NCBI RefSeq assembly: GCF_020520425.1
Contig: NC_079490.1
Coordinates: forward strand, 60,522,517-60,586,516
DNA from: Spinacia oleracea
Taxonomy: Eukaryota; Streptophyta; Magnoliopsida; Caryophyllales; Amaranthaceae
Direction of reading: 5' to 3'
Length of the DNA: 64,000 nt
Under the pieces are notes generated by a model. That model saw nothing but the letters and a program-made list of their open reading frames with translations. It had not been told where the DNA came from and did not search any database. Made by a program: the position numbers and the translations under genes. Shown one piece after another: positions 6,546-49,814 of the stretch; the stretch's first letter is position 1, and each line of letters starts with the position of its first letter.

Positions 6546-7156
6546 TGTTAGGTTATGATACATATAAAGCATATATATTTCATGCGGAAAAACCATAAAG
6601 CCAGGAATCCAAATTAATTGCCACATAAAATTTAGCATAATTTAGGATACATACTTATGTAGCGTGCCCTCCCTAGCTGCTCCCGAACCGAACAACAACA
6701 AATTTAAGACTCCAAGTGTAGTCCCTCCGTAGATAGTCCACAACACGTTCGGATCCGCCTTAGATTTAACTAGAATTCAACCTAAGGTTTTAAGTTATTC
6801 TGTAATACCTCGTATTTTTAGAATATTTATAAATATATTTTATTATATTTATAAAGCATTTTACGATTTATTATCGTTTAAATAATATTTAAATGCATTT
6901 TATTTAATGTATTTTAATTAATTAGAATATTTATTATTTTAATTAATTACGAAACGAATTTAATTCTTGAGTTGGGAAATTAAATGAGTTGCAAATGATT
7001 TTTAAAAGCTTCGGGTTTTAAATAAAAGTCCAGTTCGTTTTATTAATCAAGCCCAATCCAAACAGTTTCATTTAAATCCTAAGCTAGCCCAATTCATTTA
7101 ATTCCTAAGCCCAACTCAAATACCCTAAGCCTAGCCCATCAAGGGATTAGGGAGCC

Positions 7157-7164
7157 TATAAATA
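7157..7164 (+). promoter_or_regulatory. TATA box of the 5' LTR
   Basis: TATAAATA sits just upstream of a pyrimidine-rich transcript-leader-like segment. The identical motif is at 16889-16896 in the 3' LTR. The probable start of the genomic RNA lies about 30 bp downstream. Confidence 0.6.
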
Positions 7165-7371
7165 GGACTCCCATCATTAAATAAACCTCTAAAATTTCAT
7201 AAACCCCTTTTTGATTTCTTGCACCTCACTCCTCTCCCTCTCTCCTCTCGTCCGCACGCACGCAAACCCGTGCTCGTGCCCTTCGTGCGCTCGGCCTCAC
7301 GCCCCGCACACTGCTCGTGCTCTCGTGCCTTGGCCTCACGCCCCGCACACTCGCACGCCCCTCTCTCTCTT

Positions 7372-7470
7372 GCTCGCGCACCAGCGCCCCCCTTGCCCTC
7401 TCTTGCTCGCGCACCAGCGCGCCCCTTGCCCTCTCTTGCTCGCGCACCAGCGCGCCCCTGCTCTCTCTCC
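7372..7470 (+). repeat. 33-bp GC-rich tandem repeat in the LTR leader
   Basis: The word GCTCGCGCACCAGCGC recurs at 7372, 7405 and 7438, exactly 33 bp apart. Because 33 is a multiple of three and the DNA is poor in A and T, several overlapping frames stay open for about 150 codons on both strands. This is a composition effect, not evidence for a protein. The 3' LTR (about 17105-17200) has a diverged version. Confidence 0.75.
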
Positions 7471-8860
7471 CTCGCGTACGCAGCGCGCCCCTTGCTCCCT
7501 CCTCGCGCACATCAGCGCGCCCCTGCTGCCTCTCCCTCACGCAGCGCGCGCCTGTGCCTCGTCCCTCGTCGCTGCGCGCACACCCACACACGGTTGGTGC
7601 GTGTGTGTGTGTGTGTTGTTCGTGTTCGTCCTTGTTCAATTTTTCGCCCAATCACCCTAATTCGTGATTGTTCCGTGCTATAGGCCGGATTGGTATAATT
7701 CTCTTCTTCCTTACCTATTCTATTTAAATTCCGTATTTTAAATTATTATATTAATATTGTTTTGAGTAATTAAAATGCTGGGATCCGGTTATGAATACCG
7801 TGGTTTTGAGGATTTGTGTGTTGTGATTCATTAGGTTTGTTTTAATTATTAACGTATGAATTTTCAGATTTGTGTATTTAATAAAGCATTGATTTTTATG
7901 ATATTAAACTAGTGTTATTGGGATTTTCAAGTTAGGGTTTTAACCTAGACCTAATGAGTCAATTGATTAGCATAATTAGGTCATGATTTTAATTATGATA
8001 ATCAATTATATTTTCAGATTTGAATAAAGGTTTAAAGTGTTGATTTTTGTTGATTTTAAAGGCGGAAAAAGTATGTTTTGGTACTAGGGATTGATTTTGC
8101 AAATTGAGACGACTTTATTATTGAAAAACGATTGAATTCTAAAGTCTAAAGGAAGTTTTTAATTTTTATAAAGTTGCTGGAAATTTAATGAACATGGAAA
8201 TAATTTAAGTTTCATTATTTTGATGATAGGAGGTGATTTCTAGTTGAGTGCTCGTTATTGCAAAGTGGCCCCTACGCTTAGGTATTCAAGGTACGTACAA
8301 GTCTAGGGAGACCACACCTTTTTGTCAATGGCATTACATGATTGTTGATGTTGTGAATTACATTATGTGGAATCATGTCTATTTTGATGAACGAGCATGT
8401 GATTTGTGATGTTGGATTTGTTGGATTAATTGTTGAACAAGCATGTTGAAATTGTTATGAGTATGGATTTCATTGTCAATCATGTTGTTCAATATTTATG
8501 CATGTATGGTTCAATTCACATGCAAGGGATGGATTAATTATTTGTATGCTATTGTACGGGATGTCTAGCATACTTTGAGCCATTTATTTGTACCTCGTTG
8601 TACTATTTATTTTACCACATGTGAAGGGTTAGCTCACGTAAGCCACCGCACATGTAGGGTTCAGTTGGGAATGTTATGTATGAAATGAATTAGGATTTGT
8701 CGTGCAAGGGCACAACCCTCATGTTAATATGCATGATGTGGAATCTCACCTTTTTGTGAGAAGGAACTTGGTAGTAATTTCACTACGTCTGGATTTATTG
8801 ATCACAAGTCCTAAAGGATTAAAATGAGACTGTTTTGGTTGTTGTTTATTAAATGTATGT

Positions 8861-9169
8861 TTGTTTGAGTCTCGAGTTCGCCTTAATAAAATATTAATAA
8901 ACGTAAAGTGCAACCAGAACAAGCTTCAAAACTCTTGGAACGTATATACCTTGAGTATGAACAATGGGGGGAGACTTGCCGGAAAGCTTGATCTCCTACT
9001 AATGATACAAGACGTTGTTTCATTTAAATTATGCGCTGGAATTCCGTCGGTATGGCCCGACACTCGGCATGGTCCGATATTATTATTTATTATTTGGTGT
9101 TTGGTGGGCTCCCAACACCCTTCCTTTATGGAATATTCTTTTGGCCCGTTCGAAGCTTATTCTAATTAA
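8861..9169 (+). other. conserved LTR block with a 102-codon open frame
   Basis: This open frame is preserved at 18594-18902 in the 3' LTR and, with altered ends, at 47312-47668 in the diverged Tekay relative. The block is also among the best conserved DNA between the element and that relative. One compensated pair of indels in the 47.5-kb copy restores the frame. No family is recognised. The conservation could equally reflect a non-coding function in the U5 region, so I do not call it a gene. Confidence 0.35.
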
Positions 9170-9752
9170 ATTGTGAGTCAAGAGTCGAGTCAAGAGTGGA
9201 GTCTTGTATTCATGATTCGTTTGTTATTTATTAAATGGCTTTTGCATGTTGATTAGTACTTTAGCAAGTGATGCATGTCGATAGTTTTATTTCACTCCAG
9301 CCTTGTAAGTACTCAGCTTTTGCTGACTACGTGATTTGTGTCTTTTGGTCATGGCCTTCGCCTTAATGACCCTATGATGATCCACCATTTGCACTTGCAT
9401 TGTTGGGGAGTAGATTAATTTAGCAGGTTGGTAGATCAAAGTACGATCGAAATCATGTAGCTTGGGATGGTTGAGAGAGTTGCATTCTTTTGTGCTTTGA
9501 AACTATTTCAAATTATGTTTTGGAGTTTATGGATTTTTAATACGTTGGTTTTGGGCCGTTATGGTTCCAACTTGTAGGAGGCCTTAATAAATATTATTTA
9601 TAATGGTTTGAAAGTTAGTTAACATTAAATTCCGCTGCGTAATTCTGGTAATAGCCTTAACCGTTATCACGGTGGCGGTAATACTTTAGTAATTCCTTTA
9701 TTTTAAGTTGGAAAATGGTTTTATAAAAGCAAGGAATTATTAGGGTGTTACA

Positions 9753-10543
9753 AAGTGGTATTTGCAGAGCTCTAGTTTGAGAGCTGCTTTGCATTAATTA
9801 ATAGTGCAAAGTGGTAAATCCTTAATCTACGATTGCGGAACTTTGGGATTTTCGAAAATTATTTTCCTAAAGTCAAAACGTATTATTTTGAGTACTCAAT
9901 ATCTTAAAGGTCAAATACCAATTATTTTGGGTCGTTTGAAATAAGTTGAAAAGTTTGAATTATTATTTAATTTAATTAATTCTTACGATTTTTTTTTTTT
10001 ATTCGAAAAATTTCGAATTAAATTCGAATTATTTTCTTAATTTCGGAAATTATTCTATTTAATTATCCAATTTATTTTAATTATTTATTTATTTATTTAA
10101 TATTATTCGAATATTTTTTTCGAATTTATATTTAATTTTTTCGGATTTCTTTTATTTTATTTTTATTTTTTATCCGAAAATTATTCATTTATTTATTTAA
10201 TTAATCGATAATTTTTATTAATTTTCGATTTTAATTTAAATAATTTCTTAACTAATTTCGAAAATTAATATTATTTTCAAGTGAGAAATGGGTAGACTAA
10301 GAAGGGCATATTAGTCTAAGAATGCATATTATGTGACAATGTGATTATTAAGTGCCATATATGTTTTAACCATGTTTTATCTTGCTTCATGTGATTAATT
10401 GCATCATATTTCATGTTGAGCATATATTTGTGCATTGAAATTGTATGGCTCCACGAACTATTTATTGTATCCTTTTGGGGTTGGAAATTTCTATGGAAAC
10501 GCGTTAGTAAGACTTTTGAGTTGTGAATTTTCAGGAATTAAGG
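9753..10543 (+). other. Tekay leader: primer-binding site, hairpin, AT-rich spacer
   Basis: Two bases after the LTR end comes TGGTATTTGCAGAGC, close to the TGGTATCAGAGC expected for an initiator-Met tRNA primer site but with extra bases inside. A hairpin (about 9786-9810, CTTTGCATTA paired with TAGTGCAAAG) follows. The rest is AT-rich with a T run near 9990 and no open frame of note. It ends in a splice-acceptor-like GTGAATTTTCAG (AG at 10533-10534), 9 bp before the ATG of the extra ORF. Confidence 0.55.
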
Positions 10544-11230
10544 ATGCTACCTTCTAAGTTCACCAGTTTAGGATACTTAGAGAAGATGGATAATGAGACT
10601 CCTCGCACGTATGTTCAGAAGATCGTTTTTGCTTGTGACTATTTGGCTTCGACCAAGAACATGCCCCACCTTAGGCACAAAGATATGATGGCTAGTATGA
10701 TTATACATTGTTTACCCCATAAGAACCCCTACATAGACCTCAAGAATAGGTTCAGTGACATGCATTATAGTGATGGTACCCCTAATAGGTACAAATATGG
10801 GACTAGTGATGGTAGGTGGAAGTATGATTCTGAGGTTCTTGCTACTATCCTAGAGGTTGCGGAAAATAGCTATGAGGATGGAAAGTATTCTGCGGGTCTA
10901 GGTATGGGCTATGGAGGAATAGAAAGTGATGGTGAGGATGATATGATCCATGATGAGCAAGCTAGTGATGTTGAGGAGGATAGTGATGATGATGTGGTAG
11001 AGATTGAGAATCCTAACCCTATAGTTCCTGAACCAACCATTGAGATATCCAGTGGATCTGAAGATGAGCTTGAAGAGAATAATGTGGTTGATAGTGAGCC
11101 ACAGCAAAATGATGAGGCTATGGATGAAGACTCGGATCCGGAAGAAGACTTGGATGATCCTAATGATCAAGACTTTACTCCAGAGCAATACAAGGAAAGA
11201 AATGATCGTCGTGAGGACGTTAGTCTCTAG
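10544..11230 (+). CDS. extra acidic ORF upstream of gag (Tekay ORF1), function unknown
   Basis: A 228-residue intact frame starting at ATG 10544; the in-frame GTG further up is not a plausible plant start. The N-terminal half (about residues 1-115, MLPSKF...) looks globular, with repeated aromatic and basic residues. The C-terminal half is strongly acidic (DDDVVEIEN, SSGSEDELEE, DSDPEEDLDD), so probably disordered. I recognise no domain. A second copy at 49131-49814 in a diverged element is about 85% identical at protein level and also uninterrupted. In a 26-codon stretch (10693-10770 against 49283-49360) I count 7 synonymous and 3 non-synonymous differences, which argues for selection on the protein. 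It lies between the leader and gag, preceded by an acceptor-like sequence, so expression from a spliced RNA is possible (inference). Remarkably, it is intact while the element's gag-pol is broken. Homology to known extra ORFs of plant gypsy elements was not testable here. Confidence 0.75.
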   Translation: MLPSKFTSLGYLEKMDNETPRTYVQKIVFACDYLASTKNMPHLRHKDMMASMIIHCLPHKNPYIDLKNRFSDMHYSDGTPNRYKYGTSDGRWKYDSEVLATILEVAENSYEDGKYSAGLGMGYGGIESDGEDDMIHDEQASDVEEDSDDDVVEIENPNPIVPEPTIEISSGSEDELEENNVVDSEPQQNDEAMDEDSDPEEDLDDPNDQDFTPEQYKERNDRREDVSL

Positions 11231-11680
11231 AGAAATGTAATCCTTAGTTTTATTTTTCGTTGATTAATAAAGTGGCAAAGCTACTACTTATGGTTTTAGT
11301 TTATCATAGTTGGAGAATAAAGGTTATGGCATTAGTGGATGTAAGACTTATTCATTGGAGTTTTAATAAAAGAATAGAATTTCCTTTTTCGTTATCCTTT
11401 AAGTTTAATTCTCAATTCTAAGTCGTGTGGGTATCGCAAAGGGGTTATTTGTTATTTCTTCAATGAAATTTTATGTGCAAGGTGGTTTAGTAGCAACCAT
11501 CTAAATTTACTTGCATCGAATAGTGGGGTGAGAAGGCCCGAAAGTGGCGCCAACTCTTCCCCTAGGTGGCGCCTAAGTGTGTTATTATTGTGAGTAGGTT
11601 CGTTGTAGAACCAGTACCTTAGTAATGTCGTGTCCAACCAATATTAAAGTTAGCCTTTTTATTTATTCAGGAGAAGGGAT
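11231..11680 (+). other. spacer between ORF1 and gag
   Basis: About 450 bp with no convincing gene. It contains GGCGCCAACT and GTGGCGCC near 11540-11573, and ends with TTTATTTATTCAG (AG at 11669-11670), a good splice-acceptor-like sequence 10 bp before the gag ATG. ORF1 and gag thus share the same upstream arrangement. The homologous spacer at 49815-50150 was interrupted by another element. Confidence 0.45.
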
Positions 11681-12250
11681 ATGGCTAGCCAATAGATTTC
11701 TGAAGTGGTTAGACAATTAGCTGAGGTAGTTCGTGACCTAGCTCAAACCAGAGAAAACCCAATGCATGACCCGACTGAGGAAATGTTTAAGAAAATAGCT
11801 CAAAGCAAGCCTCCACTCTATAGCGGAGAGATTGAACCAAGTGTGTTGGAGAACTGGTTGAGAGAGTTTGATAAACTCATTGTAGCTGTGAATTGCCCCG
11901 AAAACCTTAGGGTGAATATTGCTGTGTACTACCTGAGAGGTGAAGCTGATTTGTGGTGGCAACGATGTGAAAATACCCTTAGAGCCACACCTAACTTTGG
12001 ATGGGAAGCATTCAGAACTACACCAAGGAACAAGTTTTACACACCCTACCTGAAGAAGCAAAAGGCGCAGGAGTTCATTGAACTCAAAATGGGAAGTTTG
12101 TCTGTGACGGAATACTATTCTAAGTTTATAGAGCTGTCTAGGTTTGCACCTAAAGTGGTGGCAACGGAAGAGCTCAGGGCTCAAAGATTTGAGAATGGTT
12201 TGACCATGGACTTACAGCTGTTTTGTCTGGAGAGACCTTTACCTCATTAG
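11681..12250 (+). pseudogene. gag: gag, N-terminal part (broken)
   Basis: Capsid region of a chromovirus Gag, the structural protein that packages the element RNA. The natural start is ATG 11681 (MASQ), but codon 5 is TAG (11693-11695), most simply from CAG. The open frame resumes and shows typical Gag capsid features: NWLREFDK, YLRGEADLWWQR, the KAQEFIELKMGSLSVTEYYS region and ELSRFAP. Near 12222 the frame shifts, and the rest of Gag is read in the frame starting around 12223. Both lesions inactivate it. The stop and frameshift are directly visible; the family assignment rests on motif recognition. Confidence 0.85.
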
Positions 12251-14856
12251 ACACCCTGTACGGAAAAGCTGCTCACCTGTATGGGTTACAGCAAAGGAAG
12301 AATGGTAGTGCTGAAAAGAGAAAGGATGGTGGAAACTCAAATCAAGGAAATAACCATCAGAATCAGGGAAATTTTAAGAAGCACAAAGGAAATGGGAATT
12401 TCCAGTTTAGGGCTAACAATGGTGGTAATCGCAATAACCAAGGTGGTGGAAATCAGTCTGGAAGGAATGGAGTACGGGCCTACGAATGTTGGCGCTGTAA
12501 CATGAATCACCCTGGAAAAGATTGTGATGGGAATTTGGTGACTTGTAGATTCTATCAGAAGTTAGGCCATAGGGAGTATGAATGCTATTCTAAGAATGGA
12601 AAGCCTAACCAAGGTAACCACCAAGGCAATAACCGGAATAATCAGAACCGGAATGGGGGAAATGGAGGTGGAAATCAAAGGAACTACCAAGGTGGTAACA
12701 ATGGCAATAGCAATGGCAATCACCAGAACCATGGAAAGCCTGGAGGGAACCAACAGCAGAATGGGAATCGAAACAACAATGGGAACACCAATGGAGGTGG
12801 CTATAACAAAGGAGTTGCCCAAGGAAAGTTGAATGTGATATCTAGGCAAGAAGCGGAGACTTCCTCTGACGTCATAGCGGGTACTTTTTCTATTAATTCC
12901 GTTTCAGTTAAAGTTCTATTTGATTCCGGTGCGACTTATTCTTTTATATCCGTAGATGCTTTGGGGAAATTATGGTTGAAAGAGCCTGAATCGATTGAAG
13001 TGCCTATAGTCATACCTACTGGTAGTATAGTGAAGTGTACCAAAATCCATAGAGATGTGCCTATGACCATAGCCAAGACCGTATTTTTATCTAACCTAAT
13101 CGAATTCGAGTTAGGAGAGCTAGATGTAATTCTAGGGATGGATTGGTTGGCCAAGTTCAAAGCCAAAATAGATTGTGAAAAGCAGATGGTTCACTTGAGG
13201 TCTAGCCTAGGCAAAGTAGTGTCATATCGTCGTTTTGGTAAGCCTAAGAACATAAGAATCATCACGGCAATGGAACTCGTGAAGCTAGTCAGTAAAGGGA
13301 ACCCAACCTTCTTATGTAATGTGAGGAACCTAGAGCATGTGATCAAGGATCAGCCTGAGGATATTGCAGTAGTCAATGAATTCCTTGATGTATTCCCAGA
13401 AGAGATCCCGGGGATGCCTCCCAATCGACCTATTGACTTTACCATAGATTTAGTGCCTGGAACCGCCCCTATTTCAAAAGCACCTTATAGAATGGCTCCA
13501 GCAGAAATGAATGAGTTAAAAGGCCAACTAGAGGATCTATTGGAGAAAGGTTATATTAGGCCATGTGCATCGCCTTGGGGAGCACCAGTGTTGTTTGTGA
13601 AGAAAAAGGATGGAAGTATGAGGCTCTGTATAGACTACAGGGAGCTCAATAAGGTCACAATCAAGAACAAATATCCATTACCTAGGATAGAAGACCTATT
13701 TGACCAACTAAAAGGAGCAGGAATCTTTTCGGAGATCGATTTGCGTTCGGGTTATCATCAATTGAGAATCGCTGACCATGACATACCAACGACTGCATTC
13801 AGAACTAGATACAGACATTATGAGTTCACTTTTATGCCTTTTGGGTTAACCAATGCCCCTGCAATATTTATGGACTTAATGAACCGTGTATTCCATGCCT
13901 ATTTGGACAAGTTTGTAGTGGTTTTCATAGATGACATCCTAGTGTATTCGGAGAGTGAAGAAGATCATGCGGAACACTTGAGATCGGTGTTGAGTACCTT
14001 GAGAGATAACCAGTTATATGCCAAATTCTCAAAGTGTGAGTTTTGGTTAGAAAGAGTTGCATTTTTGGGACATTTTGTGTCAAAAGAAGGAGTGGCAGTC
14101 GACCCTGCTAAGATCAAAGCTGTCAGTGAATGGCCTACACCCAAGAGTGTGACTGACATTCGTAGTTTTCTGGGATTAGCTGGCTACTATAGACGCTTTG
14201 TGCAAGACTTCTCTAGGATAGCCAAGCCCATGACTACCTTGATGAAGAAGGAAACCAAGTTTGAATGGAGTGACCAGTGTGAGGAAGCATTCCAAGCCTT
14301 AAAGACGGGATTGACAACCGCGCCAGTGTTAACCTTACCAGATGAGAGTGGCGCATACGATGTGTATAGTGACGCCTCTAAGAATGGTTTAGGGTGTGTA
14401 TTGATGCAAAACGGGAAGGTTATTGCGTATGCGTCAAGGTAATTGAAGCCATATGAATCCAATTACCCTACCCATGATTTAGAGCTAGCAGCTATAGTAT
14501 TTGCATTGAAGATATGGAGACATTATCTGTATGGTGTGAAGTGTAGGATATTTACGGACCACAAGAGTTTGAAGTACATCTTCACACAAAAGGATTTGAA
14601 TATGCGCCGACGAAGGTGGTTGGAGTTAATTAAGGACTATGATTTGGATATCCAGTACCATGAGGGAAAATCCAATGTAGTTGCGGATGCCTTGAGTAGG
14701 AAATCAAGTCATAGTGTTAGTGCGTTAGTAGTTGCTAACGAGCTGTGTAAGGACATGCAGCGTTTGAACCTTGAAATAGTAAGTGGTGAAAGCCTTGTGG
14801 GAATAATGAATTCCTTAACCATCCAACCGTCAATATTTGATGAATCAAGCTGGTGA
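12223..14856 (+). pseudogene. pol: gag C-terminus, protease, reverse transcriptase, RNase H (broken)
   Basis: Counting from 12223, an Asn/Gly-rich tail with a degenerate double zinc-knuckle region comes first (about residues 89-120). The second knuckle has Tyr in place of a Cys (CRFYQKLGH). The aspartic protease motif DSGAT is at about residue 234. Reverse transcriptase follows, with [22 protein letters not shown] and catalytic FIDD at about residue 568, then RNase H from about residue 710 (SDASKNGLG). A TAA at 14440-14442 (from CAA, restoring RQLKPYE) cuts RNase H; the frame then continues through [17 protein letters not shown] and VADALSRK to a TGA at 14854. All catalytic motifs of the reverse transcriptase are intact. 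The order protease-RT-RNase H-integrase is that of Ty3/gypsy. Confidence 0.9.
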
Positions 14857-16260
14857 TGTAAAGTTGGAGCGAATCAAGGAAAAGATTTCGCAAGGGAAGG
14901 AGTTAGAATTCTGAATCCATGATGATGGAAGCTTAAGGTACAAAGGCAGGTGGTGCGTGCCTCAAAAGTGTGGAGAATTGAAAGAGAGATTGATGAAAGA
15001 AGGGCATAATACGCCATATTATGTGCAGCCAGGGGGTGACAAGTTGTATAAGGACTTGAAAAAGGTCTATTGGTGGCCAAGGATGAAGAACGAAGTGGCT
15101 GAATTTGTGGCTAGATGTCTGACTTGTCAGAAGGTTAAAATTGAGCATAGGAGACCTCAAGGGAAGGTCCAACCTTTAGAGATTCCAAGCTGGAAATGAG
15201 ACTGTATTTCTATGGACTTTGTCACTTGTTTACCTAAGTCAAAGACTGGGAATGATACAATTTGGGTTGTGGTAGATAGGTTGACCAAGTCAGAGTGTTT
15301 ATACCAATGAAGGAAACCTGGAAAATGGAACAACTTGCTAAAGCCTACATTAAGAATGTTTTGAGGTTACATGGAGTTCCTAATGATATCGTATCAGATA
15401 GAGATTCAAGGTTTCTTTCGAATTTCTGGAAAAGTGTGCAGAAGAGCTTTGGTACAACATTGAAAATGAGTACAGCCTTCCACCCAGCCACGGATGGCCA
15501 AACTGAAAGGACTATCCAAACCCTGGAGGACATGCTTCGGGCATGCGTTATTGATTTCCATGGAAGTTGGGAAGATAGCCTAGATTTGATAGAGTTTTCC
15601 TATAACAATAACTATCATGCTAGCATTGGAATGGCACCATTTGAGGCTTTGTATGGACGAAAGTGTAGAAGTCCACTTTGTTGGAACGATATTAGTGAAA
15701 CCGTAGTGTTGGGACCTCAAATGATAGAGGACACCATGAACCAAATCTGAACCATCCAATCAAAGATTCAAGCGGCGCAGGATCGCCAAAAGAGTTATGC
15801 AGACTTGAAACGTAGGGATGAAGAGTTCAACATAGGTGATAAAGTGTTGCTCAAAGTGTCACCAATGAAAGGTGTCATGAGATTTGGGAAGAAAGGGAAG
15901 TTAAGCCCTAAATACATAGGCCCATATGAGTTCTTAGAAAGAATCGGAAAGGTAGCTTATAGACTAGCCTTGCCTATGGACTTGCATAGAGTGCATAATG
16001 TGTTCCACATATCTCAGTTAAGGAAATATATCCCGGATAAATCGCATGTGTTGCAACCGGAGACCATAGAATTAGACCAAAGTCTAACCTTTGAGGAAAG
16101 ACCTGTCAAAATCCTTGATAGCAAAGTGCGTAGTACGCGTACTAAAGATGTGAAAATTGTCAAAGTGTTGTGGTCTAATTAAGAATCTGAGGAAGCCACT
16201 TGGGAATCGGAGGACGAAATGAGAAAGAAATATCCCGAGCTTTTTCCCGAGGTTAGTTGA
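14857..16260 (+). pseudogene. int: integrase with chromodomain-like tail (broken)
   Basis: Integrase inserts the cDNA copy into the genome. Visible in order: the zinc-binding N-terminus (EGHNTPYYVQPGG ... CLTCQ; the second His of HHCC is replaced by Gln), the core with the three acidic residues (MDFVT, SDRDSRF, DGQTERT), and a GKKGKLSPKYIGPYEFLERIG tail ending in HNVFHISQLRKY. A degenerate chromodomain-like end (EEATWE, KYPELFPE) stops at TGA 16258. In-frame stops lie at 14912 (TGA, probably CGA), 15197 (TGA, from TGG), 15748 (TGA, probably CGA) and 16180 (TAA, from CAA). Frameshifts lie near 14856 and 15290. Too damaged to function. Confidence 0.88.
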
Positions 16261-16285
16261 GTTACGGGGTCGTAACTCGTGTCTT

Positions 16286-16530
16286 TTAAGGGGGGTAGAG
16301 TGCGGTAGAATTTTGCGCTTTTTACCTTGTTTTCCCCTATTTTATGCTTAATTTAGTGCTTTCTATTGAATTTGCACTTATTATTGTCCTGTTTAATCAT
16401 GTAAAGAGTACAGCAACTTAAAACTTTTGTAAATGAACGTATTGAAAAGTCTCAGAAAGTCTCAAGTTGAGTTGAATTTTTGGATTTCCGAACCCAAGTT
16501 TCGGGACGAAACTTCTTTTAAGGAGGGTAG
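16286..16530 (+). promoter_or_regulatory. two polypurine-tract-like sites before the 3' LTR
   Basis: CTTTTAAGGAGGGTAGA (16514-16530) directly abuts the 3' LTR and is the expected plus-strand primer. A near copy, CTTTTAAGGGGGGTAGA, lies about 230 bp upstream (16283-16299). The sequence between is AT-rich and non-coding. Confidence 0.6.
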
Positions 16531-16532
16531 AC

Positions 16533-19496
16533 TGTAATACCTCGTGCTTTTATAATATTTATAAATATATTTTATTATATTTATAAAGCATTTTACGATT
16601 TATTATCGTTTAAATAATATTTAAATGCATTTTATTTAATGTATTTTAATTAATTAGAATATTTATTATTTTAATTAATTACGAAACGAATTTAATTCTT
16701 GAGTCGGGAAATTAAATGAGTTTCAAATGATTTTTAAAAGCTTCGGGTTTTAAATAAAAGTCCAGTTCGTTTTATTAATCAAGCCCAATCCAAACAGTTT
16801 CATTTAAATCCTAAGCTAGCCCAATTCATTTAATTCCTAAGCCCAACTCAAATATCCTAAGCCTAGCCCATCAAGGGATTAGGGAGCCTATAAATAGGAC
16901 TCTCCATCATTAAATAAACCCCTAAAATTTCATAAACCCCTTTTTGATTTCTTGCACCTCACTCCTCTCCCTCTCTCCTCTCGTCCGCACGCACGCACAC
17001 CCGTGCTCGTGCCCTTCGTGCGCTCGGCCTCACGCCCCGCACACTGCTCGTGCTCTCGTTCCTCGGCCTCACGCCCCGCACACTCGCACGCCCCTCTCTC
17101 TCTTGCTTGCGAACCAGCGCGCCCCTTGCCGTCTCTTGCGCGCGCACCAGCGCGCCCCTTGTCCTCTCTTGCTCGCGCACCAGCGTGCCCATGCTCTCTC
17201 TCCCTCGTGTACGCAGCGCGCCCCTTGCTCCCTCCTCGCGCACATCAGCGCGCCCCTGCTGCCTCTCCCTCGCGCAGCGCGCGCCTGTGCCACGTCCCTC
17301 GTCGCTGCGCGCACACCCACACACGGTTGGTGCGTGTGTGTGTGTGTGTTGTTCGTGTTCGTCCTTGTTCAATTTTTCGCCCAATCACCCTAATTCGTGA
17401 TTGTTCCGTGCTATAGGCCGGATTGGTATAATTCTCTTCTTCCTTACCTATTCTATTTAAATTCCGTATTTTAAATTATTATATTAATATTGTTTTGAGT
17501 AATTAAAATGCTGGGAACCGGTTATGAATACCGTGGTTTTGAGGATTTGTGTGTTGTGATTCATTAGGTTTGTTTTAATTATTAAAGTATGAATTTTTAG
17601 ATTTGTTTATTTAATAAAGCATTGATTTTTATGATATTAAACTAGTGTTATTGGGATTTTCAAGTTAGGGTTTTAACCTAGACCTAATGAGTCAATTGAT
17701 TAGCATAATTAGGTGATGATTTTAATTATGATAATCAATTATATTTTCAGATTTGAATAAAGGTTTAAAGTGTTGATTTTTGTTGATTTTAAAGGCGGAA
17801 AAAGTATGTTTTTGTACTAGGGATTGATTTTGCAAATTGAGACGACTTTATTATTGAAAAACGATTGAATTCTAAAGTCTAAAGGAAGTTTTTAATTTTT
17901 ATAAAGTTGCTGGAAATTTAATGAACATGCAAATAATTTAAGTTTCATTATTTTGATGATAGGAGGTGATTTCTAGTTGAGTTCTCGTTATTGCAAAGTG
18001 GCCCCTACGCTTAGGTATTCAAGGTACGTACAAGTCTAGGGCGACCACACCTTTTTGTCAATGGCATTACATGATTGTTGATGTTGTGAATTACATTATG
18101 TGGAATCATGTCTATTTTGATGAACGAGCATGTGATTTGTGATGTTGGATTTGTTGGATTAATTGTTGAACAAGCATGTTGAAATTGTTATGAGTATGGA
18201 TTTCATTGTCAATCATGTTGTTCAATATTTATGCATGTATGGTTCAATTCACATGCAAGGGATGGATTAATTATTTGTATGCTATTGTACGGGATGTCTA
18301 GCATACTTTGAGCCATTTATTTGTACCTCGTTGTACTATTTATTTTACCACATGTGAAGGGTTAGCTCACGTAAGCCACCGCACATGTAGGGTTCAGTTG
18401 GGAATGTTATGTATGAAATGAATTAGGATTTGTCGTGCAAGGGCAAAACCCTCATGTTAATATGCATGATGTGGAATCTCACCTTTTTGTGAGAAGGAAC
18501 TTGGTAGTAATTTCACTACGTCTGGATTTATTGATCACAAGTCCTAAAGGATTAAAATGAGACTGTTTTGGTTGTTGTTTATTAAATGTATGTTTGTTTG
18601 AGTCTCGAGTTCGCCTTAATAAAATATTACTAAACGTAAAGTGCAACCAGAACAAGCTTCAAAACTCTTGGAACGTATATACCTTGAGTATGAACAATGG
18701 GGGGAGACTTGCCGGAAAGCTTGATCTCCTACTAATGATACAAGACATTGTTTCATTTAAATTATGCGCTGGAATTCCGTCGATATGGCCCGACACTCGG
18801 TATGGTCCGATATTATTATTTATTATTTGGTGTTTGGTGGGCTCCCAACACCCTTCCTTTATGGAATATTCTTTTGGCCCGTTCGAAGCTTATTCTAATT
18901 AAATTGTGAGTCAAGAGTCGAGTCAAGAGTCGATTCTTGTATTCATGATTCGTTTGTTATTTATTAAATGGCTTTTGCATGTTGATTAGTACTTTAGCGA
19001 GTGATGCATGTCGATAGTTTTATTTCAGTCCAGCCTTGTAAGTACTCAGCTTTTGCTGACTACGTGCTTTGTGTTTTTTGGTCATGGCCTTCGCCTTAAT
19101 GACCCTATGATGATCCACCATTTGCACTTGCATTGTTGGGGAGTAGATTAATTTAGCAGGTTGGTAGATCAAAGTACGATCGAAACCATGTAGCTTGGGA
19201 TGGTTGAGAGAGTTGCATTCTTTTGTGCTTTGAAACTATTTCAAATTATACTTTAATTATGTTTTGGAGTTTATGGATGTTTAATACTTTGGTGTTGGTT
19301 CGTTATGGTTCCAACTTGTAGGAGGCCTCAATAAATATTATTTATAATGGTTTGAAAGTTAGTTAACATTAAATTTCGCTGCGTAATTCTGGTAATAGCC
19401 TTAACCGTTATCACGGTGGCGGTAATACTTTAGTAATTCCTTTATTTTAAGTTGAAAAATGGTTTTATAAAAGCAAGGAATTATTAGGGTGTTACA
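16533..19496 (+). repeat. 3' LTR of the Tekay-type element
   Basis: 2,964 bp, TGTAATACC to GTGTTACA, followed by the second TATTC target copy at 19497-19501. The TATA box is at 16889-16896. The GC-rich leader repeat and the open frame at 18594-18902 are retained with a few substitutions relative to the 5' LTR. Confidence 0.9.
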
Positions 19497-20989
19497 TATT
19501 CGAATATAATTTGTGGCAAATTATTAACTTTAGTTTTAACCTTAAAACTATATGAATACTTGAATTGGGTGATGATAAATTGTGAATGCCATCACCTATT
19601 TATAGGGTTGGAATAATGGGATTAAAAGCCTACTAGGTTTCAATTAATCTAATCATATTAGAATTAGACATTAATTAAAACTAATAAGTTAATGTTTAAT
19701 TCAACAACTAACTCTAGTAACTTTAGAAAATTAATCTTTAATCTAATCCTAATCGCTTAAGGATTCGATGCATGCACGCACTCAACGCACACACGCACGC
19801 ACAACCCACGAAGCTCGGCCCACAACACTGCAGCCCACGAGTGGGCGCGCCAGCCTTGCCTTGCTCGCTGGGCCTGGCCTTGCGTGCTGCTTGGCTGGGC
19901 CTGCATGCCTTGGCGGGCTGCTGTGCTGCCTTGCGCGCATTGGCTTGCTAGGCACATGTAACACCCCCAAATTTCTCTCTTTTTTAAAACCAACATTTAT
20001 TTGAATAAAAACCAACATGGAGAGAAACTTAGGAGTATTACCGCTATGTGATTACGTTAAAGGCTAATTAACTCAACTAATGCAGCGGAATAACTCAAAT
20101 ACTTTTCTTTATTGAATAATAATAATCGAAATAATAATAATGTATATTCAATAAACCCTTGAAATTAAAATACTAAAATCTGAACTCACAAATGAAACCA
20201 ACTTAGAAAAATAAATCCTAACTAGTGAACTCTCCATTAATCCCGTATGCAAGCATGTCACATCATCACATCAAGTTCCTGAAAACTGCTCACCAAAAGG
20301 TGAACAGGGCCAAGCCAAAACAAATAGGAAATACGGGTTAGCAAAAGCTAAGTACGAATATATGCAAGACATGTAAAACATTTATATATATTTGAACATA
20401 CTTTCACAAACCATTTAATTCAAACTTGCTTAATTGAAATCGTAGAATATTCATTTTCCAAAATTAGAAACTTTCCATAAATAGTAACTTTTCAAAAGTA
20501 TAAACATTTCAAGAATTAAGATTTCCAAATTAGAAACTTTCCAAAAATAGAAACATTCCACGAAAAGAAATATTCCCAATATGTAAACTTTCCAAATATA
20601 ACAATATTCCAAAAGTAGAAGCTTTCCAAAAACAGATTCCAATTAGAACATGAAAATCAAACACCTCTTCTTATCTCCCCTTCCTTCCTAAATGTGCACA
20701 CCCCCAAGCTAGTATTCCATCACAAATCTATACATTGGGGTACTAACCAAATAATAGTCAACAAGTGACCCTCGACTTACACAACAAGTGATGCGTATGA
20801 ACATAAAAGTTCCATGAAATCCATTCCACCTTGAGACTTTATAAAAGTATAATAATATCATGAAAGACCATCCAGTTCCAACCATATGATAAACCAACAA
20901 TCCTCCTTTAATTTAATCAAACGTATTTTTAAAGAAAACAACGTATTTTGAAATAAAGATTTATAACTTATCAAAACCAAACAAACACT

Positions 20990-37945: not shown

Positions 37946-40285
37946 AGTGTTTCGAACGCAAAATTTATAATTTTGTTGATGTTAAATTAAATATTTGCGA
38001 ATCTTGTATGTAAATCTGGAATCCATGATTGACCTACTGTATATGTTTAACAATTTTAATGCCTAAACTAGTTAATTATACAACCTAATTTGTAATTGTA
38101 ATTAATATGTTGAAATTCGAATAATTTAGAATTTGATTTGATTTTCATAATTAATTAGCAATTTAATTAGGATCCTATGATTAAAAACACCATAAGATTT
38201 GTTGAAATTTAAAATTTTTAAAATTTTATGACCTAGATTTGAATCCATGAAAATAAAAGTAATTGGAAATCAATTTGAATAATAAATTTTAGATTTTTCG
38301 CCTAAATTTATGAAATTAGTATGAATTATTAATTTGTCAATAAATTTAAATTATAAATTTTTTAATTTTTATGAAATTCGTTCACGAATCTTGCACGCAC
38401 GAAGCAATGAAAGCTAAGTGTTACCCTTAAGGGGTGTTGTATAGTGCGGGCATGCGACGACGAGCAAGGGAGCTCGTCGCCCATGTGGTACGATGCAGCG
38501 AGCAAGGCATGGCACATGCGCGCGGGGGGCAGCCCTGCTGTGCGCTATGTGCTATGTGCACGTGGGCGATAGGCGAGAGCAAGGCAGCGACGAGCTACGA
38601 GGCCGCACGCGGGCAGTGAGCGGTGGCTCGCCCAGCGAGCATTGCCCCGCCCCCTGCCACATCGAGGGAGCTGCTGCGCGTAGGCATGGCTTGCTCGGCT
38701 TGTTGCGTCTACACGTGGCTGCTCGTGCTTGCGGTACGACCATTGCGAGTGGCAGCCCATGGGCGCTGCTACTAGAGACCTCGACGAGGCATGGGCGCAA
38801 GCCTATGGCCTTGTCTTGGGCCGATTGGTTCGTTTTAATTTTAATTTTTCGGTTGAAAACGATTTTAATTAAATTTAAATTCGTAATTTAATTTTTTCTC
38901 GTAATTTAATTTTAAATAATTTAATTATTATAAATTTATTTATACTAATTATTTTACTAAAATTAAAACCTTGATAAAATTTAAATTAATTAATTTAATC
39001 AACTGAAAATAAAATAAAGGATTTAAATAATATTTTATATGAGCTTTAAATTTTAATTAAATTTGTAAGTTTCCGGTTGGACTAGGAAATACAATTTTAT
39101 GTTTAAAATTCGTAAAGCATGTAAATTTCTTGATTTTAGTGGGAGCCTTTAGTCATAAACTCTTGATTAGGTCTACATTCCTTTAAGGTTAAAACAACTG
39201 GATTAGAATTAATAAGGATTGAATAATTTGTAGATTATTGGAAGCCTTGATTAATTGCTGCAAATATTTATGTGATGCATAATATGTTCAACTAACTTGC
39301 TATGTGGGCCATTCATTGATAAATGAATGGGTTAATGATATATTGTAAATGTACTGTTTTGCAGGTTATGAAAGTGAATAGTATGGCCCAAATAGGATAG
39401 AAAATATGGTATGCTTACCATTAATTTGAATGTAAAATTGGTCTAATGCACCAAAGCTTTTAATTTTAAATATGGTCTGCGTACCATCAAATAGTTGTAA
39501 TTAGTTTCAATTATAGCATATCCTATTTGAAGAGAATGGCGCCTCCCATGGTGAAATTCAAGACGGAGTTTCCAATCCATTTTCAAGACGGAGTTTGAAG
39601 TTGAAGCTTCAAGATAAAGTCGGGCCATACTATATCACAGTTATATCTTATGCATGCTTTAAGTTATTTATTGCCTGAAATATGTCTTAATTATGCATCA
39701 GATTGTGGCTTCATTATGTTGCATGATTAAGGATCTTAGTTCACTTAAAATCTAACCAACATAGTAAGAGCCTTAAGTTTCAAACTTTAAAAATTGAGTT
39801 AAAAGGTGCCATGCCAAAATACCACTTACTTGGATAACCTTTACATCAGTCTTAGTAATAGTTTTCCGCCATAGCGAGGTGTTACTTATTGATCCTAAAG
39901 GGATAAGGTACACAAATAATTGTGAGTACATGTTAGTTTTGGTAAAACTCAACGATATAAGGAGTCCTTTTATGTCGTGGCAAAACAGATAGGTTTACCT
40001 AATAAGACCTTAGACGTACCTATCAACCAAGAGTAGTTTCTAGACTATTAGCAAAGGATTTGCTTACCTAAAATATTTTAGAATTGAGTCTAAATACATA
40101 TTGTGCTTAATTCTTCAATGATTTAAGGGTCTTGGAATCGTTTTATTCACACCTGCCGGAACACATAACTTGAATAAAATGCTTGATAAATATTGAATTA
40201 TGCATGCATGCTAGAATTTAAGTTTATTAAGAGAAACTGTGAATGGTTATTTATTTGTTTATTCTTTTCAATTGTAGTTTTAATT
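37946..40285 (+). other. copia leader, second part, with GC-rich island
   Basis: 2.3 kb of non-coding leader directly before the gag ATG. From 38262 on it is the inverted relative of 1-2000 and 4201-6200, which shows that those minus-sense blocks are leaders of the same family. A GC-rich island (about 38440-38825) interrupts AT-rich DNA; frames through it differ between the three copies, so it is not coding. The CTTTAAGTTATT...GGTGTTACTTATTG segments are conserved. Confidence 0.6.
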
Positions 40286-42388
40286 ATGGCAAACAACAAT
40301 CAAAACATCATCATGGGTTCTGAGCTTATGATCAAGCTGAACCTAACAAATTTTCTTGAATGGGAAGCTAAGCGGGTTGAAGTAGTGAGACTCAATGGAT
40401 TTGAGTATGTACTGTTCAATCCCATGCCAAGCTACTATGCCAGAGACATGACCTCTGAAAGACATGCCGCCTGCGATGCGGATCTCAAGAAGGTTATGAG
40501 TCTCATGCTGAACAACATCCCTGATGATTGGGTTAGGATGTTTGTAGCTTACGAACCTTTTATGCTCATCAAGAATCTGAGGGATATCTGTCGTGGAAAC
40601 ACGGAGGACAGAGACCTAAATGTCCATGAGTTGATCGAATCAATGTCAGGCTTGAAGGTTAGTTCTCATAACAGATGTTTTAGGATGGAAGTCCAAAAAA
40701 CAAATGTTCGCACTAAACAAAGGGTTGGTGTTCCACTAAGGTTTCATGTAGACCTTATGCTTTCATTATATGATCGCGTAAGTCTACTAGGATCACCAAT
40801 AAGCGAAAAGATGGCAGTCTCAATCTTACTCAATTTACTCCACATTGGGTTTGGTCGCTTTAAGCAACTATACATGAGTGAACCAAGAGAAGAAACAGTT
40901 GAAGAGTCGTTTGTTCACTTGGTCAAAAAGGCTGAGATAATACTCGGCTGTGAAGCCAAGGATTTACTCAAGGCTAAAGGGAGACCCTTCAAGAAAGGTG
41001 GAAAGTTCAAGGGAAATGCTGAGTCAGTTCCCAGAAAGAAGAAAAAGCAAGACAAGTCCACATCAAGCTGTCTTTATTGTGATGGAATTGGCCATTACAA
41101 GAGAGAATGTCCAAAGCTTAAGGAAGATCAGAAGAACGCAACGGCCGTTCTATCTTCAGGTATTTTCGTTATAGACTGTATAATTGCTAATTCAACTTCT
41201 TGGGTATTAGATACAGGTTGTGGCTCACACTTATGTTCCAATTCACAGGGACTAAGAAGAAGTAGAAGATTAAGTAAGGGTGAAGTCGACCTACGAGTGG
41301 GAAATGGAGCACGGATTGCTGCATTAGCTGTAGGAACTTATTATTTGTCGTTTCCCTCTAGGCTAGTTTTGGAACTGGAAGAATGTTTCCATGTTCCAAG
41401 TCTTGCTAAAAACATCATTTCTGTTTTTTGCTTAGATGCTAAGGGATTTTCTTTTTTAATAAAAGACAATAGTTGCTCGTTTTATTTTAAAGAGATGTTT
41501 TATGGATCTTCTAGATTAGTCAATGGACTTTATTTATTAGATCACGACAAACAAGTTTATAACATAAATACCAAAAAGGCCAAAAAGAATGATTCAGATC
41601 TCACATATCTGTGGCATTGTCGATTAGGCCATATTAACATGATGCGCATAGAAAGACTTCAAAAGGAAGGAATTCTAGAACCATTTGACTTAGAGGATTA
41701 TGGTAAGTGCGAATCATGTTTACTTGGCAAATTGACAAAGCAACCTTTCTCTAAAGTTGGAGAAAGAGCAACTGAACTATTTGGTTTAATCCATACAGAT
41801 GTATGTGGACCAATGAGTACAAATGCTAGAGGTAGTTTCAGCTACTTTATCACTTTCACTGATGACTTCATTAGATATGGTTATGTCTACCTAATAAAGC
41901 ATAAGTCTGAATCCTTTGACAAATTCAAGGAATTTCAGAGTGAAGTAGAGAATCAGTTAGGCAAGAAGATTAAGGCACTGCGGTCTGATAGAGGCGGTGA
42001 ATATCTGAGCTATGAATTTGATGACCATCTGAAAGAATGTGGAATTCTATCAGAATTGACTCCTCCCGGAACACCTCAATGGAACGATGTGTCAGAACGG
42101 AGGAATAGAACCTTGCTAGACATGGTTAGATCAATAATGGGTCAGGACGAACTTCCAATAGAATTTTGGGGACATGCACTAAATACAACTGCACTCACAC
42201 TAAATAGCGCTCCGTCTAAAGCTGTCGAAAAGACTCCATATGAGTTATGGTTTCGAAAGCCTCCAAATGTGTCTTTTCTTAAGATTTGGGGTTATGAAGT
42301 ATACGCCAAACGATTAATTTCAGACAAACTTCAACCAAAATCTGAAAAATGTATTCTTGTGGGCTATCCAAAGGAAACAAAGGGGTAT
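40286..42388 (+). CDS. gag-pol: copia Gag-Pol, N-terminal two-thirds (truncated by insertion)
   Basis: The start is ATG 40286 (MANNNQNIIMGSEL); upstream in-frame codons read leader. In order: gag (EWEAKRVEVVRLNGFEYVLF), a CCHC zinc knuckle (CLYCDGIGHYKREC, about 41070), an aspartic protease motif written DTGCGSH (about 41209), the integrase zinc domain (LWHCRLGHINM ... CESCLLGK) and the integrase core with HTDVCGPM, SDRGGEY and NDVSERRNRTLLDMV. About 700 residues are open without a stop. The conserved Gly of the NGVSERR-type motif is Asp here. The frame is cut at 42388, before reverse transcriptase and RNase H, by the Tat-lineage LTR; TSD GGTAT is on the left only. Integrase before RT is the copia order; the sequence resembles the Angela/Tork lineage (tentative). 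Confidence 0.88.
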
Positions 42389-42825
42389 TGTACGGGAAGC
42401 CCTACCGGCAAGCCAGTAGGACATCCCATAACAGCTCCTACGAATACATAGTCACCAAGGAGAGACCAAGACTGCAGTCGGTATCCAAGGTATACTACTC
42501 GCAGTCGGCCTTTCTTTGTCAGTATCCACCAGTCAGACCCAAAGGGGGGGATCCGGGACCAAAGGGTAATAACCCGGATCCTCCGTACAAATAACCCGTC
42601 TATAAATACGGACCCCCCATCAATGCCAAAGGTACACAATTCAACCCCAATCATTCTTGCAAGCATTTATTACAGAGGTATCATCGTAATCTGACTTAAG
42701 CATCGGAGGGGTAATTCTCGGATCACCCCCGAGGCTAGTTAACGGTTTCACTGTGCAGGATACAGTCAGCATTTAGTATCGGAGACAAGTCAACCCTTTC
42801 CTGTTCCAAGTCCGCAACCGGAACA
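42389..42825 (+). repeat. 5' LTR of a Tat-lineage gypsy element
   Basis: It starts TGTACGGGAAGCCC inside the copia gene. The end is probably CCGGAACA at 42825, whose inverse TGTTCCGG resembles the start; an alternative end is GGATACA at 42764. A TATA box, TATAAATA, lies at 42601-42608. TTGCCGCTAGAAGGAGGGG follows, resembling the TGGCGCTAGAAGGAGG-type primer site of Tat elements. Confidence 0.6.
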
Positions 42826-49130: not shown

Positions 49131-49814
49131 ATGCTACCTTCTAAGTTCTCAAGTCTAGGATACCTAGAGAAACTGGATAACGAGACTCCTCAAATGTATG
49201 TCCAGAAGAGTGTGTTTCCTTGCTACTATTTTGCTTCAACCAAGGATATGCCACATCTTAGGCAAAAGGATATGATGGCTAGTATGGTTATTCATTGCTT
49301 GCCCCATAAGAACCCTTACATAGACCTTAAGAACAAGTTCAGTGACATGCACTATAATGATGGTACCCCTACTTGGTACAAGTATGGGACTGGAGATGGT
49401 AGGTGGAAGTATGATACTGAAGTTCTCACTACAATCTTAGAGGTTGCGGAGAATAGTTATGAGGATGGAAAATACTCTGCGGGTCTAGGTATGGGCTATG
49501 GAGGAGAAGAAAGTGATGGTGAAGATGGCATGATACATGATGAGCAAGCTAATGATGTTGACGAGGATGATGATGATGTAGTTGAGATTGAAAATCCTAA
49601 TTCTGTAGTTCCTGAACCAACAATTGAGATATCTAGTGGATCTGAGGATGAGCTTGAAGAGGACAATGTGGTTGATAGTGAGCTACAACAGGATGATGAG
49701 GCTATGGATGAAGATTTTGATCCGGAAGAAGACTCGGATGATCCTAATGATCAAGACTTTACTCCAGAGCAATACAAAGAAAGAGATGATCGTCGTGACG
49801 ACATTAGTCTTTAG
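49131..49814 (+). CDS. extra acidic ORF of the second Tekay element (ORF1 homologue)
   Basis: A 227-residue intact frame, MLPSKFSSLGYLEKLDNETP..., collinear with 10544-11230 and about 85% identical, ending KERDDRRDDISL against KERNDRREDVSL. Differences concentrate at third codon positions in the stretch examined. The globular N-terminal part and the acidic tail (DEDDDDVVEIEN, SSGSEDELEEDN, DFDPEEDSDDPNDQDF) are both kept, with short in-frame indels only. The element around it is otherwise reduced: the LTR is truncated, and after 50150 another element begins, so gag-pol is not visible. Retention of the frame in a decayed element means it was intact until recently or is under selection at family level. 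Function unknown. Confidence 0.7.
   Translation: MLPSKFSSLGYLEKLDNETPQMYVQKSVFPCYYFASTKDMPHLRQKDMMASMVIHCLPHKNPYIDLKNKFSDMHYNDGTPTWYKYGTGDGRWKYDTEVLTTILEVAENSYEDGKYSAGLGMGYGGEESDGEDGMIHDEQANDVDEDDDDVVEIENPNSVVPEPTIEISSGSEDELEEDNVVDSELQQDDEAMDEDFDPEEDSDDPNDQDFTPEQYKERDDRRDDISL

What the first reader, a model, noticed from the sequence alone, without database searches (positions are those of the whole stretch)
10544..11230. Conserved extra acidic ORF upstream of gag in Tekay-type elements
Both Tekay copies in the window (10544-11230 and 49131-49814) carry an intact 227-228-codon frame between leader and gag that matches no family I know. The proteins are about 85% identical, and indels are in frame. 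In 26 aligned codons I counted 7 synonymous and 3 non-synonymous differences. In the complete element this frame is intact while gag-pol has many lesions. My recollection is that extra upstream ORFs in chromoviruses have been reported mainly from grasses, so a protein of this type in what looks like a eudicot may be undescribed. The ordered N-terminal half and acidic C-terminal half suggest a chromatin- or nucleic-acid-binding adaptor, which is speculation.
Basis: partly seen in the sequence, partly recalled or inferred. Interest (0 to 1): 0.85.

Follow-up and report, generated by a model that had tools for sequence, protein, structure and literature searches.

The report
Conserved extra protein of plant retrotransposon
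A very abundant jumping element of a plant genome (probably spinach) carries an extra gene ahead of its usual ones; natural selection has kept the protein working, and its best-kept stretch looks like a pair of docking sites for the host's SUMO tag, although no binding has been shown.

Summary
Window 10544-11230 is an intact 228-codon frame between leader and gag of a complete Ty3/gypsy element (LTRs 97.9% alike, TSD TATTC); 49131-49814 is a second copy, 84% identical. Relatives of 57-91% identity, which I sort into six groups, lie in the same 894-Mb genome; the first look gave about 3,500 candidate places. Selection is clear. Window copies: 47.5 synonymous, 34.5 non-synonymous differences, dN/dS 0.13-0.21. 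In a sample chosen by a non-coding neighbour, private variants are near neutral (0.85), widely shared ones constrained (0.11). Gag between A and B copies: 0.12-0.24. No significant match in Pfam or PDB; gag ancestry not supported. New here: the tightest 27-codon window of the protein (147-173, dN/dS 0.15) lies in the acidic arm, beside a linker at 0.63. It reads SDDDVVEIENPNPIVPEPTIEISSGSE: two SUMO-interacting-motif-like strands, then Ser/acid. I propose a SUMO-docking adaptor; untested. A 5' extra ORF in a eudicot Tekay group is already published (sunflower, 2024), so the kind is known; the open-access searches listed did not show me this protein.

The parts
6796..6800 (.). 5-bp target site duplication TATTC, left
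   Evidence: TATTC directly before the 5' LTR (TGTAATACC...); repeated directly after the 3' LTR
6801..9752 (+). 5' LTR of the complete element
   Evidence: blastn against the 3' LTR, 97.9% over 2965 columns, 50 mismatches
9753..10543 (+). leader, very AT-rich in the middle (88% AT at 9960-10260), ending GTTAGTAAGACTTTTGAGTTGTGAATTTTCAGGAATTAAGG before the ATG
   Evidence: composition and motif count; a similar end in most of the 20 loci
10544..11230 (+). extra ORF (5' aORF), 228 aa, intact
10544..10879 (+). N-terminal domain, residues 1-112; predicted helix-helix-helix-hairpin-helix, low confidence
   Evidence: dN/dS by segment 0.19-0.29 between groups; AF2 pLDDT 52.6
10880..10981 (+). variable acidic linker, residues 113-146
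   Evidence: dN/dS 0.63, length varies between groups
10982..11062 (+). most constrained block, residues 147-173, with SIM-like VVEI (10994-11005) and TIEI (11036-11047) followed by SSGSE
   Evidence: dN/dS 0.15; lowest pN/pS of all 27-codon windows
11114..11227 (+). acidic C-terminal tail, residues 191-228, predicted end helix; replaced in group F
11231..11680 (+). non-coding spacer between extra ORF and gag, ending TTTATTTATTCAGGAGAAGGGAT
11681..12247 (+). gag (capsid region), broken by a stop at codon 5
   Evidence: PF03732 E 1.3e-13 on 11705-12247; stop
12223..14442 (+). protease-RT-RNase H part of pol
   Evidence: PF08284, PF00078, PF17919
15295..16182 (+). integrase pieces with SH3_Tf2-1 domain
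   Evidence: PF24626 E 5.9e-27; PF00665 only weak, E 0.032, below its cut-off
16533..19496 (+). 3' LTR, followed by TSD TATTC at 19497-19501
49131..49814 (+). second copy of the extra ORF, 227 aa, intact

Best explanation
The frame is a real gene of a Tekay-type chromovirus family: a 5' additional ORF kept by selection while the element is transposing and decaying almost neutrally once a copy has landed (shown by the substitution patterns; I put this layer alone at 0.95). How it works is inferred: the protein has a small folded N-terminal domain that binds something of the element or chromatin, tethered to a disordered acidic arm whose conserved core is a pair of SUMO-interacting motifs, VVEI and TIEI-SSxSE, the second with a Ser/acid extension of the sort that strengthens SIMs when phosphorylated. 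It would act as a nuclear adaptor or decoy that docks the element, or its silencing machinery, on SUMO or SUMO-modified chromatin proteins, to help integration or to blunt silencing. The SUMO step is untested and carries the doubt in the figure given for the statement as a whole.
For: Window pair dN/dS 0.13-0.21, shifted frames 1.08 and 2.48. Spacer-chosen sample, variants by how many of 38 copies share them: omega 0.85 (one), 0.41 (two to three), 0.11 (four or more). Six groups, 13 of the 16 members of A3, 69 between-group pairs (not independent of each other): whole ORF 0.31, N domain 0.19-0.29, linker 0.63, block 147-173 0.15; 147-173 ranks first of all 27-codon windows. VVEI/VVEV and TIEI/TIEL cores are present in 16 of 16 members of A3 and in 7 of 8 further copies, one with VVEF (the eighth, L126, leaves the frame before the block); in 118 open frames a VVEI-type core was matched in 100 and a TIEI-type core (one TIDI) in 95, the misses being partly interrupted frames and partly errors of my pattern (my sums). 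gag A-B 0.12-0.24 in the 12 of 29 loci that gave a usable match, so the ORF is constrained about like gag at that distance. SIM description: typically four hydrophobics as a beta strand, SXS extension that can be phosphorylated (PMC8064691, passages); the plant MOM1 SIM is VVCLS and binds SUMO in yeast two-hybrid (PMC6084981, passages).
Against: No binding, expression or localisation data. SIMs are short and degenerate; the second core (TIEI) has only two aliphatic residues. Conservation shows a functional linear motif, not that SUMO is its partner. I saw no basic nuclear localisation signal in the ORF (by eye, no program run). AF2 models are poor (pLDDT 42 and 53). The SIM of MOM1 is dispensable for silencing, and the paper's test in Arabidopsis did not support a MOM1-SUMO2 interaction there as far as the passages show, so SUMO docking need not matter for silencing. 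At larger distance the ORF (0.30-0.35) is less constrained than gag (0.09-0.12) against group F.
Confidence: 0.4

Rival explanations
1. Selected 5' aORF whose acidic arm works by charge alone (histone or nucleic-acid mimic, condensate former or Gag partner), with the conserved block serving some partner other than SUMO.
For: Net charge -38 over residues 113-228; acidic runs change length in frame, so charge and not exact sequence is kept there.
Against: The 147-173 block is kept far more exactly than the rest of the arm, which pure charge does not explain.
Confidence: 0.35
2. Silencing suppressor of the element, acting on RNA silencing or DNA methylation through the N-terminal domain, in the way proposed for other aORF proteins.
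For: Precedent only: PMC11728184 suggests RNA-silencing modulation, from weak fold matches of grass Tekay aORFs (abstract and section 2.5). The conserved basic-aromatic hairpin YKYGTxDGRWxYD could touch nucleic acid (inference).
Against: No significant fold or sequence match here.
Confidence: 0.17
3. A diverged duplicate of the Gag capsid C-terminal domain that modulates particle assembly.
For: Helix order and a YVxKI/CLP pattern look loosely gag-like to me; one capsid (PNMA2, E 5.5) appears among the noise of the fold search.
Against: Profile comparison with the element's own gag (an alignment of two sequences) gives probability 0.3% and with the copia frame of the window 0.04%; no Pfam gag hit in any of 16 members.
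Confidence: 0.05
4. A passenger fragment without function that happens to be open.
For: 19 of 40 spacer-chosen copies are not intact.
Against: Constraint in shared variants, frame specificity, in-frame indels, retention in six groups at dS about 0.7-1.2 from the window copy for groups C-F.
Confidence: 0.03

Closest known systems
Sunflower Tekay group 2 5' aORF protein (Tekay 13-2; PMC11728184)
   Same: Eudicot Tekay, ORF between LTR and gag, conserved in most copies (500 of 523), no Pfam match, largely disordered
Poaceae Tekay 5' aORF proteins (Retrosat-2, RIRE3, RIRE8, Sb7, maize Tekay)
   Same: Same position in the same clade; biased composition (as told in PMC11728184)
   Different: According to PMC11728184 no amino-acid similarity to the sunflower one; partial histone H3 similarity in some is recalled from Steinbauerova et al. 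2011 (not read); not compared by sequence here
Bongo1-3, Tekay-clade elements of Beta vulgaris (PMC3605345)
   Same: Tekay clade, in a plant family that the paper compares with spinach
   Different: The passages I read describe one gag-pol ORF and differing UTR lengths, no upstream ORF
SIM-bearing nuclear proteins (MOM1 VVCLS, PIAS/SIZ1; PML, SP100, Daxx recalled)
   Same: Aliphatic core flanked by acid and Ser, second core followed by SxS/acid
   Different: No homology claimed; a retrotransposon protein; binding not shown

Membership tests
5' additional ORF of a plant Ty3/gypsy element | Sense ORF between 5' LTR and gag, in many copies of a family | tested here: met
   Position; six groups; gag reading on downstream in 4 of 5 group F copies looked at (L122-L125; the fifth, L117, breaks off), in L118 and L119, and split by an insertion in L116/L121
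5' additional ORF of a plant Ty3/gypsy element | Maintained by selection | tested here: met
5' additional ORF of a plant Ty3/gypsy element | Transcribed and translated | not testable with these tools
   No transcript or protein data
Tekay clade | Ty3/gypsy domain order gag-PR-RT-RH-INT | tested here: met
   Pfam matches in order; the integrase core itself only weakly (E 0.032), its SH3 end strongly
Tekay clade | Chromodomain at the integrase end | tested here: inconclusive
   No PF00385 hit in the open piece 15805-16179, which ends at a stop where I would expect the domain by eye
Tekay clade | RT phylogeny | not tested
SIM-containing protein | Aliphatic core of about four residues with neighbouring acid/Ser | tested here: inconclusive
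   VVEI fits; TIEI-SSGSE only partly, two aliphatic residues; no SIM predictor was run
SIM-containing protein | Binds SUMO through that core | not testable with these tools
   Needs a binding assay
Gag capsid paralogue | Profile similarity to Gag | tested here: not met
   hhalign probability 0.3%
Sunflower or grass Tekay aORF homologue | Sequence similarity | not tested

The most novel reading that the evidence does not exclude
An LTR retrotransposon family encodes its own reader or decoy of SUMO, with a tandem SIM as the most conserved part of the protein, and uses it to couple integration or silencing escape to host SUMO-marked chromatin; 5' aORFs of other Tekay groups would then be unrelated proteins that arrived at the same docking job.
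Probability: 0.25. Interest if true: 0.8.

Novelty: new variant of a known kind. Interest (0 to 1): 0.52.

Why it matters
Extra ORFs of plant LTR retrotransposons are common and mostly without known function (PMC7264820 abstract; PMC11728184 passages). Here the many copies in one genome serve as a natural mutation experiment: they indicate that the protein is needed while the element moves and point to a 27-residue stretch as the part that matters most. That turns 'unknown acidic ORF' into one cheap test (does this peptide bind plant SUMO?). If yes, it links a mobile element directly to a host chromatin mark; if no, the same peptide is still the bait to find the real partner.

Tried and rejected
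Gag origin: tested by profile comparison and Pfam, not supported. Splicing of the leader or of the whole ORF to express gag: the ORF and gag each sit 9-10 nt after a T-rich CAG, and a GTAAGA lies 37 nt before the ATG (GTAAGA plus YAGG in 51 of 60 loci), but a genome search for the GTAAGA-to-gag junction, up to 3 mismatches, found nothing; of 60 loci 54 had a recognisable LTR end, 53 of these with an unshortened leader (732-918 nt), and the one short leader (L052, 242 nt) is a deletion between two GGATT repeats without a GT donor, so it is not a spliced copy. A non-autonomous group that kept only the ORF: L117 and L116 looked so, but L117 is one rearranged copy, L116 has an insertion in gag, and L122-L125 have gag. 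Fold: two AF2 models of low confidence; Foldseek has no match below E 1, with winged-helix repressors and a capsid among the noise, which I do not interpret. Relatives outside this genome: none in IMG/VR or in GTDB contigs; I had no other plant genome to search. Chance-level listings that I do not interpret: PDB sequences at E 0.69 and above, single Pfam families at E 0.24 and above in 1 of 18 and a few of 16 members. A first variant count included non-homologous stretches of rearranged copies; I replaced it, which leaves out the recombinant L078 and masks unaligned parts. A motif count (second half) read gag instead of the ORF in long loci; replaced.

Full report
What is there. The window lies at G000:C4:60522517-60586516 of an assembly of 894 Mb in 242 contigs, contigs C1-C6 being 115-189 Mb, which fits spinach (six chromosome pairs; recalled, no call names it). 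The first element spans 6801-19496 with LTRs of about 2.95 kb, 97.9% identical (50 mismatches and 12 gaps in 2965 columns) and a 5-bp TSD TATTC on both sides. Between leader and gag sits an intact 228-codon frame, 10544-11230. The second copy, 49131-49814, is 84% identical with one single-residue gap; tblastn finds no third copy in the window. Gag-pol of the first element is broken: TAG at codon 5 of gag and several further breaks.

Is it more than chance? Search of the own genome with the proteins gave 3495 and 3596 first-look candidates, of which only the best 150 are scored; all 150 for the window copy cover residues 1-228, and by my count 16 of them list an internal stop. That list is chosen by protein score and is not fit for a dN/dS test. 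I therefore took the 40 best-scored places for the non-coding spacer 11231-11680 (40 of 1231 candidates; L061-L095 with L002, L007, L010, L014 and the window itself). 21 of 40 have a frame of at least 225 codons. Counting variants against the window copy in 38 of them (the window is the reference, the recombinant L078 is left out, unaligned parts are masked) with the mutation spectrum of the spacer in L002-L030, omega is 0.85 for variants in one copy (106 N, 42 S, 4 stops), 0.41 for two to three copies (16 N, 13 S, 1 stop) and 0.11 for four or more (5 N, 15 S). Reading the same bases in the two other frames gives 1.14, 0.75, 1.59 and 1.20, 1.78, 6.57. Pseudo-frames of the spacer in L002-L030 give 1.37, 1.67, 0.58; 1.33, 0.76, 0.82; 0.73, 0.46, 0.99, so single classes scatter, but none falls as low as 0.11. 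The pattern is what a gene needed during transposition looks like: near-neutral decay after landing, constraint in the lineages that spread. The 29 protein-chosen copies L002-L030 give 0.35, 0.10 and 0.20 for the ORF, the first two lowered by their selection, and 0.62, 0.31 and 0.56 for gag 11705-12247.

Deeper relatives. One spacer-chosen copy (L078) is a recombinant whose first 60 codons come from another group. Using them as query led to L096-L115, and a second query to more of the same; eight more were read. The alignment A3 holds 16 members, 57-91% identical to the window protein. I sorted them by eye into groups A-F; in a tree of the N domain A, C and F are clades, D is a single copy, B and E are grades. 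dS from the window copy to groups C-F is 0.71-1.24, so the ORF is old relative to the LTR divergence of the window element; I do not convert this to years. Over 69 between-group pairs of 13 members (not independent) dN/dS is 0.31 for the whole ORF: residues 1-20 0.19, 21-60 0.22, 61-94 0.29, 95-112 0.28, linker 113-146 0.63, 147-173 0.15, 174-190 0.34, 191-205 0.33, 206-220 0.53. Of all 27-codon windows in the protein the lowest pN/pS is at 147-173 (0.23), closely followed by windows at 7-33 in the N domain (0.25). Gag between the window and B-type copies gives 0.12-0.24 (12 of 29 loci with a usable match) and between the window and F 0.09-0.12 (4 copies); the ORF gives 0.17 (window pair) and 0.30-0.35 (5 copies). 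So it is constrained like gag at short range but evolves faster over the long run, most in the linker and tail.

What the protein looks like. Residues 1-112 are near neutral in charge, 113-228 carry a net charge of -38. Both AF2 runs, of low confidence, draw helices at about 20-37, 45-56 and 63-71, a short hairpin at 84-94 (the conserved YKYGTxDGRWxYD) and a helix at 96-110. Foldseek finds nothing significant. Pfam, PDB by sequence and by profile, and gag profiles give no significant match. The tail after residue 205 is replaced in group F.

The conserved block. In SDDDVVEIENPNPIVPEPTIEISSGSE the two cores are kept in all 16 members of A3 with only V/I/L exchanges at the five aliphatic positions, while the linker before it changes sequence and length; of eight further copies seven keep them, one of these with Phe in the first core, and one leaves the frame earlier. 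In 118 open frames read from the loci a VVEI-type core is matched in 100 and a TIEI-type core in 95; the misses are partly interrupted frames and partly errors of my pattern, and 5 loci were not scored. A stretch kept this tightly inside an arm that is predicted without structure is the signature of a linear motif. Two aliphatic cores with acid before and Ser/acid after resemble SIMs: a beta strand of typically four hydrophobics, with an SXS extension whose phosphorylation strengthens binding (PMC8064691, passages). A plant SIM shown by yeast two-hybrid is VVCLS of MOM1 (PMC6084981, passages). Likeness to PML, SP100 and Daxx SIMs is from memory. Two cores with ten residues between them could suit SUMO chains (inference). 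None of this is proof; the same paper shows that the MOM1 SIM is not needed for silencing.

How gag is expressed behind a 228-codon ORF is open. Both start codons follow a T-rich CAG by 9-10 nt, which suggested alternative 3' splice sites, but I found no spliced copy in the genome and rejected the one candidate as a microhomology deletion. Lack of spliced copies does not exclude splicing.

Literature. Searches of the open-access library listed no paper whose title, start of abstract or passages that I read describe this protein. The spinach repeat survey (PMC6337768, passages) counts Tekay/Del as common and, in the passages shown, mentions no extra ORF. Beta Tekay elements are described with one gag-pol ORF (PMC3605345, passages). 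Sunflower Tekay group 2 has a 5' aORF in 500 of 523 elements, unlike the grass ones in sequence (PMC11728184); the same paper cites 5' aORFs of Tekay-clade elements from earlier work. PMC6317226 counts extra ORFs of at least 250 codons (passages), so a 228-codon ORF would escape that count. Steinbauerova et al. 2011 was not read. Searches for SUMO-interacting motifs with plant or LTR retrotransposons listed no such element protein in titles and starts of abstracts. Subscription papers are mostly not covered.

Verdict. Observation confirmed and widened; interpretation partly supported. A known kind of feature (5' aORF of Tekay), a protein for which I found no relative outside this genome, and a concrete, untested mechanism. 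Interest 0.52.

Noticed in passing
9787-9816; 48280-48430; leaders of L002-L060: Right behind the primer-binding site the leader has one to three units of a 10-bp-stem hairpin (CTTTGCATTA/TAGTGCAAAG in group A, CTTTGTAGTA/TACTACAAAG in B-type copies, with paired changes between them) followed directly by TGGTA, the core of the tRNA-Met PBS (recalled). At least one unit in 47 of the 50 leaders that could be cut out, of 60 tried (where overlapping matches are counted twice). Could be a packaging, dimerisation or priming signal.
   Followed up: partly
10507-10534 and 11655-11670: GTAAGA plus T-rich CAG before the extra ORF, and T-rich CAG before gag, are kept in many copies (51 of 60; 39 of 60 exact for the gag motif). 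Possible splice signals; no spliced genomic copy found.
   Followed up: partly
L078 (G000:C3:32360319-32361081): Recombinant copy: the first about 60 codons belong to another group, the rest to group A, suggesting template switching within this ORF.
   Followed up: partly
L096 151-897: Copy of group C with a long (ER)n run near the C-terminus of the extra ORF, probably a simple-repeat expansion.
   Followed up: no
L117 513-2213: Group F copy whose gag breaks off after about 45 codons into unrelated sequence that looks, by eye, like the 5' end of a host gene; four other F copies keep gag.
   Followed up: partly
40193-42451: Copia-type frame of 752 codons in the window, with zinc knuckle and integrase-like sequence by eye.
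   Followed up: no
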